Below, in pieces: positions 3,940 through 10,716 of a DNA stretch of 12,589 nt. A model generated the notes under the pieces. That model was not told the DNA's origin. It saw only the letters and a list, made by a program, of their open reading frames with translations, and ran no database searches. How positions within the stretch are numbered: the first letter of the stretch is position 1; the number at the start of each line of letters is the position of its first letter. Where the stretch lies: positions 1 to 12,589 of the forward strand of contig NZ_CP118111.1 in assembly GCF_028747985.1 (NCBI RefSeq), in the 5' to 3' direction. Source of the stretch: Paenibacillus urinalis (GTDB lineage: Bacteria; Bacillota; Bacilli; Paenibacillales; Paenibacillaceae). The position numbers were made by a program, and so were the translations under genes.

Positions 3940-3995
3940 GCAGCTATCGCGCCTTCGGCTTGCTGAAGGTCTACAAAAAAGTGAATATCGTCTTT
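3936..3995 (-). pseudogene. Severed 3' end of the coiled-coil gene (continues at 5417)
   Basis: If the 3996-5411 element and one TCTTT copy are removed, the minus-strand ORF at 5405-5869 runs on without a frameshift. The lysine shared at the junction is followed by DDIHFFVDLQQAEGAIAA, and translation stops at TAA (3936-3938). The open frame across the junction supports the view that these 60 bases were the original C-terminal codons. The reconstructed stop overlaps the stop of the convergent 378-aa gene by two bases. Confidence 0.7.
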
Positions 3996-4033
3996 GGGGT
4001 AGAGTCCTGAAAATGCGGATTTACAACGGTAAT
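3996..4033 (+). repeat. Left terminal inverted repeat (38 bp)
   Basis: It matches the reverse complement of 5374-5411 at 33 of 38 positions. Mismatches are at positions 8, 12, 13, 15 and 38 of the repeat; the block from position 16 to 37 is identical in both ends. Confidence 0.9.
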
Positions 4034-4186
4034 GTAATTTTCACCCATAAATAAAGCCGATTTTAAGAAATCGACTGTTGAACTAAAGCTCCCTTTACTT
4101 TAAGTACATTTCTTCACAATCTTTAGATTAATTTATTGGATTATTTTTATGTGAAAGAGTGATATTAAATAAGAGCTTTAATTCGA
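4034..4186. other. Left non-coding arm of the transposon
   Basis: About 150 AT-rich bases between the left inverted repeat and the tetR promoter. I see no gene. A short dyad GCCGATTT/AAATCGAC-like (about 4056-4074) is the only structure. No clear resolution site was found. Confidence 0.4.
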
Positions 4187-4216
4187 TTGACAAAAAAACC
4201 GTCCAGAAGGTATATT
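4187..4216 (+). promoter_or_regulatory. Promoter of the tetR-SMR operon
   Basis: TTGACA (4187-4192, consensus -35) and TATATT (4211-4216) are separated by 18 nt. The -10 overlaps an AT dyad (TATATTATAT, 4211-4220), a plausible operator for autorepression by the TetR protein, as is usual for this regulator family. The operator role is inferred. Confidence 0.75.
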
Positions 4217-4243
4217 ATATGTATCTAAGTTATGGAGGTTATT

Positions 4244-4795
4244 ATGTCTATTTCAAAGCATGCTAATAAGAAAAAAAATATATTGATTGCTGCATCTGAA
4301 ATTGTAAAAGAAGAAGGAGTTGTCAAACTCACATTAGAGGCAGTCGCCCAAAGAGCTGGCGTGAGTAAAGGTGGATTATTATACCATTTTCCTAGCAAGG
4401 AAGCATTAATTAAAGGAATGGTGGAAGATTGGACAAATAATTATTTCGAATGCATTAATACGTTAGTTAATAACGACGATGATAACGCAATAGGAAAATG
4501 GAATAGGGCTTATCTTAAATCTACATTTTCCGATTTAGAAAACAATAATCTAAATTCCGCACTAATGGCTGCTATGTTTATTAATCCAGATTTATTAGAT
4601 GAATTCCGGCAGAGATACGATATTTTGCATACAAAGTTAATAACTGATGGAATTGATCCTGTCAAAATAACAATTACAAGATTATCCATAGATGGTCTTT
4701 GGTTTTCAGAAATATTTGGAATGGCACCATTAAATGAAGAACTAAAAACACAAGTTTTTGATGAACTAATAAACATGATTCAGGAGGACGAATAA
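4244..4795 (+). CDS. TetR-family repressor of the efflux operon
   Basis: 183 aa from the ATG at 4244, preceded by GGAGG with 5 nt spacing. An upstream in-frame ATG (4232) overlaps that site and is rejected. The N-terminal TetR DNA-binding domain is clear: helices over residues 7-50, with AVAQRAGVSKGGLLYHFPSKEALI containing the recognition helix and the typical Y-H-F motif. The C-terminal ligand-binding and dimerisation part (about 55-183) is shorter than in many TetR proteins. Its stop shares one base with the start of the SMR gene and its 3' end contains that gene's AGGAGGA site, so the two are translationally coupled. By family knowledge and context, it probably represses this promoter and releases it when a cationic drug or biocide binds. 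The ligand is not shown by sequence. Confidence 0.9.
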   Translation: MSISKHANKKKNILIAASEIVKEEGVVKLTLEAVAQRAGVSKGGLLYHFPSKEALIKGMVEDWTNNYFECINTLVNNDDDNAIGKWNRAYLKSTFSDLENNNLNSALMAAMFINPDLLDEFRQRYDILHTKLITDGIDPVKITITRLSIDGLWFSEIFGMAPLNEELKTQVFDELINMIQEDE

Positions 4796-5172
4796 TGTCA
4801 TATCTATATTTAGCACTTGCAATAGTGGGGGAGATTATTGGCTCTTCCCTATTAAAAGCATCTGAAGGCTTTTCAAAACTCTATCCTACAATAGGGGTAA
4901 TAATAGCAATCGTTGGTTGTTTTTTCTTTTTATCCTTGTCGCTAAAAACAATCCCCTTAAACACTGCATATGCATTATGGGCAGGTTTAGGACTTGTTTT
5001 GACTACAGTAATTTCAGTTTTAGTTTGGAAGGAAAAAATTAACATGGCTAGCATTGCAGGAATAACACTGATTGTTGTAGGAGTTGTAATATTGAATTTG
5101 TTTGGACCAGGACATGGAGAATCTGGTCATGAAGCAAGCGAAACTATTACAATGAATGAGACAATGGAATAA
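4795..5172 (+). CDS. SMR-family multidrug/quaternary ammonium efflux pump (QacH/EmrE-like)
   Basis: 125 aa with four hydrophobic segments (about 3-22, 30-50, 57-77, 84-104), the layout of small multidrug resistance proteins. These work as membrane dimers exchanging protons for lipophilic cations. Glu13 in AIVGEIIG corresponds to the essential Glu14 of EmrE. The LNTAYALWAGLGLVLT motif in the third segment and the VWKE loop are typical. The C-terminal tail after residue 104 is longer than usual and rich in His, Gly and Glu (GPGHGESGHEASE); its role is unknown. Pairing with an adjacent tetR resembles qacH operons described in Gram-positive bacteria. Likely outcome: reduced susceptibility to quaternary ammonium biocides or dyes. 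Substrate range is inferred. It follows tetR with a 1-base overlap. Confidence 0.92.
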   Translation: MSYLYLALAIVGEIIGSSLLKASEGFSKLYPTIGVIIAIVGCFFFLSLSLKTIPLNTAYALWAGLGLVLTTVISVLVWKEKINMASIAGITLIVVGVVILNLFGPGHGESGHEASETITMNETME

Positions 5173-5178
5173 CACATA

Positions 5179-5212
5179 AAAAAGTCCTTCTTAATAAAGA
5201 GAAGGACTTTTT
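5179..5212 (+). terminator. Intrinsic terminator of the efflux operon
   Basis: 13-bp perfect stem (5179-5191 with 5200-5212), 8-nt loop, A-run on the left and T-run on the right. It sits 6 nt after the SMR stop codon. Confidence 0.92.
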
Positions 5213-5373
5213 AGCTTAATTAAGGGTATTTTTTGAAGTCCTTATTCAACAAACCTGCGTACGTTAGTTTAAGTGTATCACTTCACAATTCCAATAGAGT
5301 AGAGTTTATTGAGACATAATGAAATTAGCGTTTTAAATGACTTCTGACTGTCTCATAAGACTTGTATCAAATG
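5213..5373. other. Right non-coding arm of the transposon
   Basis: No gene seen. TGAGACA (5310-5316) and TGTCTCA (5349-5355) form a spaced dyad, which could be a leftover of a resolvase or transposase binding region of the parent transposon. Otherwise featureless. Confidence 0.35.
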
Positions 5374-5411
5374 CTTACCGTTGTAAATCCGCATTTCCCT
5401 GACGCTACCCC
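5374..5411 (-). repeat. Right terminal inverted repeat (38 bp)
   Basis: Reverse complement partner of 3996-4033. It is closer than the left end to the Tn1546/Tn5422-type end as I remember it (GGGGTAGCGTCAGG). Its TAG supplies the present stop codon of the interrupted minus-strand gene. Confidence 0.9.
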
Positions 5412-5869
5412 TCTTTAAAAACAGAAAACTCCTTGCTGATCTGCACGAGTTTTTCCTTCAATTTTCCGTTCTCTGATTTCAATTCCCGATTCTCATTTTG
5501 GTAAGACCGGTTCTCGATTTTTAGAGTGTCCACCTCTTGTTTTAACTGCTTTTTCTCCTTCAACTGGTCATTGTATTTATTAACGAGTCCATTGTACTTC
5601 TCTATCAAGTCTCCATAGTTCTTTACAATGTCTGTTTGCTTCACTTTTTGCAGTGCTTTTTTCTCTGCTAATGAGTCTAAATTCTCCTCAATATCCTTGT
5701 AATAATAGCGAATTTTATCTTGTCCAATTTGCATATCAGCTTTCAGCTGCGCACTCTGCAGAAATGAATCGTTCGATTCGTTTGCTGGGTTCGGATCCTT
5801 CACAAAACGGAAAGAAAGAGAACATTTCAGGATTCGGCTCTTTTCTCTTCCACGTTGGAGGAAATTCAT
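5405..5869 (-). pseudogene. Coiled-coil protein gene cut by the transposon
   Basis: The ORF has 154 codons to the TAG inside the transposon's right end. From about residue 60 to the end it is a strongly predicted coiled coil (KYNGLVNKYNDQLKEKK, KIENRSYQNENRELKSEN). The last two residues (EG) come from the transposon; the original end lies at 3936-3995. The 5' end is also doubtful. The ATG at 5869 has no ribosome binding site and lies 6 bases from the boundary of the 104-bp repeat, so the gene may be truncated there by an older recombination. Translation could instead begin internally (for example ATG near residue 43). Similar coiled coils end some MobV/Pre relaxases and other plasmid proteins, but no catalytic domain remains, so function is unknown. 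Confidence 0.65.
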
Positions 5870-10149: not shown

Positions 10150-10716
10150 CTATCTTTTAATGCCTGCCTTTTTCGCCATCGCATAAAGAGAGCTGCGCGG
10201 GATATTGTACTCGGCGCAAATGTCGGATACGAGTTCTTTGCCCTCTATATAGCGCTCTAACGCCTTCTGCATGCCTTCGCGAGAATAACCTATGGCTTCA
10301 CGCCCCAGGTGTTTCCCGCGCTTTCTCGCCGCTTCTATGCCCCTTTTTTGCTTCTCTTTGTTCATTGCCCTCTCCATCTCCGAGAACGCCGCCAAAATCG
10401 CAATAATGGGCTTTCCAAGTGGTCCGCGCGTATCGAGATCCAAATTTAAAATTCGAAATCGAACGTCTTTTTTTTCTAGCGTTTCAATGAGCTGCAGCAA
10501 CTGAACGGTGCTTCTGCCTAACCGATCCATTCGCGTAACGATAATGCTATCGCCACGTTCCACTTTTTCAACGAGTGCATCCAACCCGTCTTTGACCGGC
10601 GAAACGCCGGTAATCACCTCCTGAATGATCTCATCCACGCCGAACTTTTCTAATTCATCCAATTGCGAATTTAAGTTCTGTGATTTATCCGAAATTCTCG
10701 CATAGCCGTATATCAT
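10150..10716 (-). CDS. Serine resolvase (Tn3/beta-recombinase type)
   Basis: 188 aa from the ATG at 10716, with AGGGGGAG 5 nt upstream. The resolvase/invertase N-terminal catalytic domain has Ser9 in YARISDKSQN, and Arg62, Arg65 and Arg68 in TRMDRLGRS. The long helix starting near AILAAFSEMER (about 105-135) is the dimer/tetramer element. The C-terminal helix-turn-helix is at about 160-186 (SDICAEYNIPRSSLYAMAKKAG). Length is normal for the family. Such enzymes resolve plasmid multimers or cointegrates at a res/six site, usually just upstream of their own gene; here that space (10717-10860) holds several dyads. It is followed at once by the rep leader, as in Inc18 resolvase-rep arrangements. 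Confidence 0.93.
   Translation of the reverse strand: MIYGYARISDKSQNLNSQLDELEKFGVDEIIQEVITGVSPVKDGLDALVEKVERGDSIIVTRMDRLGRSTVQLLQLIETLEKKDVRFRILNLDLDTRGPLGKPIIAILAAFSEMERAMNKEKQKRGIEAARKRGKHLGREAIGYSREGMQKALERYIEGKELVSDICAEYNIPRSSLYAMAKKAGIKR

What the first reader, a model, noticed from the sequence alone, without database searches (positions are those of the whole stretch)
3996..5411. Minimal Tn3-family transposon whose only cargo is a biocide-efflux operon
38-bp inverted repeats (33/38 identical) of Tn1546/Tn5422 type, an exact TCTTT target duplication, and no transposase. Inside is a self-contained promoter-tetR-SMR-terminator unit. Passenger-carrying non-autonomous Tn3 elements are few, and this one would spread biocide tolerance using other transposons' enzymes.
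Basis: partly seen in the sequence, partly recalled or inferred. Interest (0 to 1): 0.78.

Follow-up and report, generated by a model that had tools for sequence, protein, structure and literature searches.

The report
Mobile cassette carrying a disinfectant pump
This stretch is a small jumping-DNA cassette that carries a disinfectant-efflux pump and its regulator but no enzyme to move itself; near-identical copies sit at different places in several bacteria, and the same cassette was described in Listeria in 2021.

Summary
Confirmed, and already in print. Window 3996-5411 is a 1,416-bp element with Tn1546-type Tn3-family ends (33/37 identical), a TCTTT target duplication, a tetR-SMR operon, and no transposase or resolvase gene. 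Copies at 99.4-99.7% identity lie at five other sites in Priestia, Listeria, Enterococcus and Paenibacillus. Five of the six sites read at both ends have exact, different 5-bp duplications, and a Listeria plasmid shows the empty site with a single TGTAA. So it has moved. Chmielowska et al. 2021 (PMC8508797) described this unit as a mobile insertion cassette on pLIS12/pLIS26 in benzalkonium-resistant strains. The window adds a new site (a Paenibacillus urinalis plasmid). Movement in trans by a Tn1546-group transposase is inferred: none of eight carrier records held any other such end. Two side observations: 5 of 13 variable columns among nine copies fall in a 24-bp tetR promoter/operator; and the cargo lies between two direct copies of a 45-bp hairpin repeat dispersed in Bacillaceae plasmids, at whose first base homology to a Brochothrix operon begins. 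I found neither in print, but searched little.

The parts
3991..3995 (.). left copy of the 5-bp target duplication TCTTT
3996..4032 (+). left terminal inverted repeat (37 bp)
   Evidence: 33/37 to the right arm
4078..4120 (+). left copy of the dispersed hairpin repeat 'D1' (my label)
4187..4216 (+). promoter-like TTGACA-N18-TATATT, overlapping an operator-like palindrome (about 4198-4211) that is perfect in three diverged homologues and departs at one base here
4232..4795 (+). tetR-family regulator gene, 187 aa
   Evidence: named WP_002019922.1 in relatives
4795..5172 (+). SMR efflux pump gene, 125 aa (qacH-like)
5179..5212 (.). 13-bp perfect stem-loop, terminator-like (scan flagged the minus strand)
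5245..5289 (+). right copy of the dispersed repeat 'D1', same orientation
5375..5411 (-). right terminal inverted repeat (37 bp), of the common Tn1546-like type
5412..5416 (.). right copy of TCTTT

Best explanation
It is a non-autonomous Tn3-family element, a mobile insertion cassette (MIC). Two Tn1546-type 37/38-bp ends enclose only a tetR-SMR (qacH-like) operon. Shown by sequence: exact ends, 5-bp duplications that differ between sites, an empty site, presence in several genera, no transposase gene. Inferred: a Tn1546-group TnpA supplied by another element recognises the ends and copies the cassette to new sites by replicative transposition; the cointegrate is resolved by another route, since the cassette has no resolvase gene; TetR represses the operon until a quaternary ammonium compound releases it, and the SMR pump then exports the compound.
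For: 7 PLSDB records hold at least 80% of the unit, each at 99% identity or more. Duplications: TCTTT (P. urinalis), TAGAA (Priestia), TGTAA (two Listeria plasmids), TAAAA (E. faecalis LR962259), AAGAT (Paenibacillus TCA20). Empty site: in 6 of 28 records matching the pLIS26 region, all six Listeria, the two flank pieces span exactly 995 bp (2,416-1,416-5); one of the six, pLI47-2, was read and has a single TGTAA. The right end is 36/38 identical to ends on many plasmids (369 of 442 matching records in the 90-95% band; 276 of the 442 are Enterococcus), one of them in an Exiguobacterium element with its own Tn3 transposase. Strains with the Listeria copies were benzalkonium-resistant (PMC8508797 section 2.5.2, read whole). 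Deleting qacH of the related Tn6188 halved the benzalkonium MIC (30 to 15 mg/l) (PMC3788773, passages).
Against: E. faecalis 142-1 has no clean duplication (GTTAT/TATAT). No Tn1546-type end besides the element's own was found in any of 8 carrier records (7 plasmids and the TCA20 draft genome) at up to 3 mismatches. A Tn3 transposase gene occurs in 2 of those 8, and the transposon next to the LR962259 copy ends in a different sequence (by eye). The other carriers' chromosomes were not searched. The SMR protein scores below NCBIfam's cut-offs for QacCGHJ (144.6 against 160 bits) and QacH (137.8 against 205). PMC8508797 says further experiments are needed to confirm the cassette's function, and PMC3788773 says complementation would be needed for proof.
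Confidence: 0.93

Rival explanations
1. It is an internal-deletion derivative of one larger, still existing transposon that carried tetR-SMR next to tnpA.
For: Non-autonomous Tn3 elements can arise this way (recalled). The 91 bp inside the right end match DNA beside similar ends in Priestia flexa, Peribacillus muralis and Cytobacillus solani at 73-78%.
Against: The 53 bp inside the left end match only copies of the element (7 of 7 records). The two ends differ at 4 of 37 bases, and the left end's closest other matches (91.9-94.6%) are on a Fusobacteria, a Priestia flexa and a B. subtilis plasmid, not on an element with this operon. Of the 10 records that hold the operon, none showed it together with tnpA between such ends; in 3 of them (L010-L012) no such end was seen in the stretch fetched.
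Confidence: 0.15
2. The cargo is itself a cassette flanked by recombination sites (the D1 repeat), captured between Tn3 ends after moving by another route; a Tn554-like transposon and a Brochothrix plasmid hold the same operon from the same source.
For: Two direct D1 copies flank the operon. Homology to the Brochothrix operon starts at window 4078, the first base of D1, and Brochothrix has D1-like copies on both sides. A D1-like copy (5 mismatches in 26) lies downstream of the operon in the Tn554-like context of Macrococcoides. Its core occurs at 45 places in 7 of 8 records, most of them picked for having it, with 0 hits for the reversed control. Alignment ends fall at D1 18 of 226 times, against a rotated mean of 1.9 and maximum of 9 in 200.
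Against: No recombinase is identified. The regions were chosen because they hold D1, their 113 alignments are not independent (many are IS110 copies), and no matched intergenic control was made. D1 may be an intergenic palindrome at which breakage or IS110 insertion happens. Rossellomorea showed none near its operon, the Macrococcoides record had no hit for the core at 3 mismatches, and one P. asahii stretch searched in 72,556 plasmids gave no shared module with both borders at D1.
Confidence: 0.12
3. Chance inverted repeats, or a dead relic fixed in one plasmid lineage.
For: No transposase gene was seen among the window's scanned ORFs.
Against: Six sites read at both ends, five with exact duplications, plus an empty site; best shuffle match 24/37.
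Confidence: 0.01

Closest known systems
tetR-SMR mobile insertion cassette of Listeria plasmids pLIS12/pLIS26 (Chmielowska et al. 2021, PMC8508797)
   Same: Same element: pLIS26 copy 99.5% identical over all 1,416 bp, same ends, 5-bp duplication; the paper also names E. faecalis LR962259 and C. difficile LR595854 copies.
   Different: The window copy is in a Paenibacillus urinalis plasmid at another site.
Tn6188 (Listeria, Tn554-like; PMC3788773)
   Same: Related tetR-qacH operon; PMC8508797 gives 93% amino-acid identity for the pump.
   Different: Tn6188 has tnpABC and sits in radC (abstract); here Tn3-type ends and no recombinase. That Tn554-type movement leaves no duplication I saw only as a title in its reference list.
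Tn1546 / Tn5422-type Tn3-family transposons
   Same: Terminal repeats (right end 36/38 to the commonest type) and 5-bp duplication.
   Different: No tnpA or tnpR. PMC8508797 compares the ends with Tn7129 (32/37).
[quoted passage not shown] PMC4133298)
   Same: Non-autonomous, Tn3-family ends, 5- or 6-bp duplications (abstract).
   Different: TIMEs are 262 bp; this is 1,416 bp with an operon.

Membership tests
Mobile insertion cassette (MIC) | ends of a known transposon family, no transposase | tested here: met
Mobile insertion cassette (MIC) | carries genes unrelated to transposition | tested here: met
   tetR and SMR only
Mobile insertion cassette (MIC) | has moved as a unit (several sites, target duplications, empty site) | tested here: met
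   one of six sites lacks an exact duplication
Mobile insertion cassette (MIC) | moved in trans by a related transposase | not testable with these tools
   needs a bench assay
Autonomous Tn3-family transposon | encodes TnpA (DDE_Tnp_Tn3) | tested here: not met
   no such ORF in the element; PF01526 in 0 of the 2 P. urinalis plasmid records
Autonomous Tn3-family transposon | resolvase gene | tested here: not met
   no resolvase ORF inside; the window's recombinase gene is at 10150-10716, outside
Autonomous Tn3-family transposon | res site | not tested
   not specifically searched
QacH (NCBIfam NF000279) | score over the curated cut-off | tested here: not met
   137.8 against 205 bits; PLSDB's AMRFinder rows for the copies call it qacH at 97.6-100% identity
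SMR family (Pfam Multi_Drug_Res) | score over the gathering cut-off | tested here: met
   97.3 against 23.7 bits; EmrE is the closest solved structure by sequence
Tn6188 / Tn554-like | tnpABC recombinases | tested here: not met
   absent from the element
TIME | miniature (262 bp in the defining paper) | tested here: not met
   1,416 bp with two genes

The most novel reading that the evidence does not exclude
The efflux operon is a gene cassette of an undescribed site-specific system in Bacillaceae megaplasmids. It is bounded by direct copies of a 45-bp hairpin repeat (D1) that acts as the recombination site, and it has been handed on from there to a Tn3-type cassette, a Tn554-type transposon and a small Brochothrix plasmid. 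Its promoter/operator then diversified independently in the recipient hosts.
Probability: 0.1. Interest if true: 0.7.

Novelty: already known. Interest (0 to 1): 0.3.

Why it matters
A small unit carrying only a disinfectant pump moves between plasmids of soil, food and clinical Bacillota, independently of Tn6188 and bcrABC. Most of this was published for Listeria in 2021; the wider host list, the target-site comparison and the empty site extend it. If the D1 repeat proves to be a recombination site, that would be a separate and larger finding.

Tried and rejected
Parent transposon: the 53 bp inside the left end found only copies of the element (7 of 7 records). The 91 bp inside the right end matched 22 records, 7 of them copies; 8 of the other 15 were listed. 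Of these I looked at P. flexa, P. muralis, C. solani and a second Priestia megaterium plasmid.

Other paired ends among fetched loci (scan at up to 10 mismatches): 216 bp (L016), 267 bp (L018), 240 bp (L071), 669 bp (L092) and 444 bp (L093) lacked matching duplications; 240 bp (L061, duplication TTAAA, one end at 8 mismatches) and 3,190 bp (L017, TCTTA) had them; for L019 the right flank was not held.

Cognate transposase in the same cell: IR pattern on 9 records or genomes; 8 held only the element's own ends, and the ninth (another plasmid of the Priestia strain) held none. The transposon beside the LR962259 copy has a different end and is shared with Priestia and Cytobacillus plasmids.

D1: no Rfam match over a gathering score. 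As a general Bacillota repeat, rejected: 2 of 199 drawn genomes have the core at up to 2 mismatches, and in one of the two the match is the copy inside this element. As a dif-like Xer site: judged by eye against recalled dif sequences, not convincing. A paper on GTAG/CGTC-tagged palindromic repeats (PMC3733652) was seen only in a listing.

Contigs labelled Rhodanobacter and Mycolicibacterium (L013, L015; 4,824 bp each, coverage 4.7 and 4.6 in their titles) hold the Priestia site with the same flanks; I treat them as probable contamination and count them neither as sites nor as hosts. Phage records: 4 match, best 85.3% over 72%, none a full copy. The C. difficile copy named in the paper (LR595854.1) was not among the records and was not examined.

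Paper searches. One search found nothing; one search gave almost only irrelevant papers. Papers opened: PMC8508797 (passages and section 2.5.2), PMC3788773, PMC6542083, PMC4133298 (passages); no supplements.

Full report
WHAT IS THERE. The element runs from 3996 to 5411 (1,416 bp). The arms 3996-4032 and 5375-5411 match at 33 of 37 bases, against at most 24 of 37 for a fixed 37-mer in each of 200 shuffles. TCTTT stands on both sides. Inside are tetR (4232-4795) and an SMR pump gene (4795-5172), overlapping by one base, a promoter-like site at 4187-4216 and a perfect stem-loop at 5179-5212. There is no transposase or resolvase gene. The whole window matches Paenibacillus urinalis plasmids NZ_CP118104 (12,591 bp, 99.4%) and NZ_CP118107 (25,177 bp, 99.8%; apparently a head-to-tail dimer with two copies of the element).

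IT HAS MOVED. Of 72,556 plasmid records, 12 match and 7 hold at least 80% of the query, each at 99% identity or more. One scan of genome contigs gave 3 loci and one of viral contigs gave 1, left end only. The sites are: TCTTT in P. urinalis; TAGAA in Priestia megaterium pPmC-129-16; TGTAA in Listeria pLIS26 and pLIS12; TAAAA in E. faecalis LR962259; AAGAT in Paenibacillus TCA20; GTTAT/TATAT, not a duplication, in E. faecalis 142-1; and the viral contig with left flank AATAA, right side not held. So six sites are known at both ends, five with exact and different duplications. Six of the 28 records matching the pLIS26 region are Listeria plasmids in which two pieces span exactly 995 bp, the length expected of an empty site with one copy of the 5-mer; in one of them, pLI47-2, I read CTCTGTAAGTGG there.

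WHICH FAMILY. The right end matches 442 plasmid records, 369 of them in the 90-95% band (those listed in that band at 36 of 38) and 276 of them Enterococcus. The left end is farther: 378 records, 368 in the 80-90% band. An Exiguobacterium element with such ends has a Tn3 transposase, a recombinase gene and dfrE. In a draw of 398 genomes of the class, 34 hold such an end at up to 2 mismatches, one of them through this element. Another cargo-only element with these ends lies on a B. subtilis plasmid: 3,190 bp, duplication TCTTA, with a multicopper oxidase and a DUF6944 protein. So the vehicle is of a known kind and not unique.

ALREADY IN PRINT. PMC8508797 section 2.5.2 (read whole) describes the pLIS12/pLIS26 cassette with 37-bp inverted repeats and 5-bp repeats, calls it typical of non-autonomous mobile insertion cassettes, reports that strains with it were benzalkonium-resistant (function still to be confirmed), and names copies in E. 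faecalis LR962259 and C. difficile LR595854. The pLIS26 copy is 99.5% identical to the window. The finding is therefore a new site and host for a known element. MICs are mentioned in PMC6542083 (passages); activation of MICs in trans, with Tn3-family elements among the examples, in PMC4133298 (passages).

HOW IT PROBABLY WORKS. Transposition in trans by a Tn1546-group TnpA is inferred from the ends and the 5-bp duplications. None of the 8 carrier records held any such end besides the element's own, and a Tn3 transposase gene is present in 2 of those 8, so the enzyme was elsewhere in the cell or has been lost; the other carriers' chromosomes were not searched. Regulation is inferred: a palindrome (ACCGTC-CA-GACGGT or ACCGTC-TG-GACGGT) between the -35 and -10 hexamers is perfect in Brochothrix, Rossellomorea and Macrococcoides homologues, which are 84-90% identical to the window, the usual place for a TetR operator. 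The window's copy departs from it at one base.

A REGULATORY HOT SPOT. Among nine aligned copies (window, L001-L005, L009, L014, L015; left out were L006, whose two copies equal the window's, L013, which is cut by the contig ends, and the partial L094) there are 13 variable columns, and 5 lie in 24 bp (4192, 4199, 4206, 4208, 4215): the A-run after the -35, the palindrome, and the -10. Random placement puts 5 or more in any 24-bp window in 63 of 200,000 trials (38 if the adjacent pair 4908/4909 counts once); without the A-run column, 4 in 17 bp in 385 of 200,000. pLIS12 and pLIS26, 99.9% identical over the 2,416 bp compared, differ here. This fits selection on pump regulation after transfer, but the copies are few and related, L015 is probably contamination, the 24-bp window was chosen after seeing the data, and an A-run length difference can be a sequencing error. 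The direction of any effect is unknown.

THE D1 REPEAT. Two direct copies of a hairpin with a conserved tail (4078-4120, 5245-5289) flank the operon inside the ends. The 53-bp query around the left copy matches 64 plasmid records at 122 places at E up to 1, the element's own copies in 7 records included. In eight records, most chosen for holding D1, 45 places match the 22-base core at up to 3 mismatches, in 7 of 8 records, with no hit for the reversed control; in the four megaplasmids 6 of 10, 8 of 12, 11 of 12 and 7 of 8 copies share the commoner strand. IS110-family transposase genes lie near some copies. Homology between this operon and the Brochothrix one starts at D1's first base. Query-side ends of 113 alignments among fetched regions fall at D1 18 of 226 times (rotated mean 1.9, maximum 9 of 200), but the regions were picked for holding D1, the alignments are not independent, and no matched intergenic control was made. 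A D1-rich stretch of the P. asahii plasmid searched in PLSDB gave only short matches elsewhere and no module bounded by D1 on both sides. I keep this as an open lead.

Noticed in passing
window 4078-4120 and 5245-5289; L023, L033-L052: Dispersed 45-bp hairpin repeat (D1) in Bacillaceae megaplasmids, partly in local same-strand runs, some copies near IS110 genes; no Rfam family reached its gathering score.
   Followed up: partly
window 4192-4215: Five of 13 variable columns among nine copies fall in the 24-bp tetR promoter/operator.
   Followed up: partly
L017:7001-10190: Cargo-only element with the same kind of ends on a B. subtilis plasmid: multicopper oxidase plus DUF6944 protein, duplication TCTTA.
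   Followed up: partly
L006 (NZ_CP118107.1): The 25,177-bp record looks like a head-to-tail dimer of the 12.59-kb plasmid (element copies 12,588 bp apart).
   Followed up: partly
L013, L015: The same 4,824-bp low-coverage plasmid contig appears in assemblies named Rhodanobacter and Mycolicibacterium; probably contamination by a Priestia-like plasmid.
   Followed up: partly
window 5405-5869 (minus); L003:2915-3859: The neighbouring reading frame ends inside the element's right part, in the window and in pLIS26 (Rgg-type regulator).
   Followed up: no
L094:12919-13019: Left end of the element on a contig of the viral collection (IMGVR_UViG_3300011386_000001), left flank AATAA; right side not held.
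   Followed up: no
   Followed up: no
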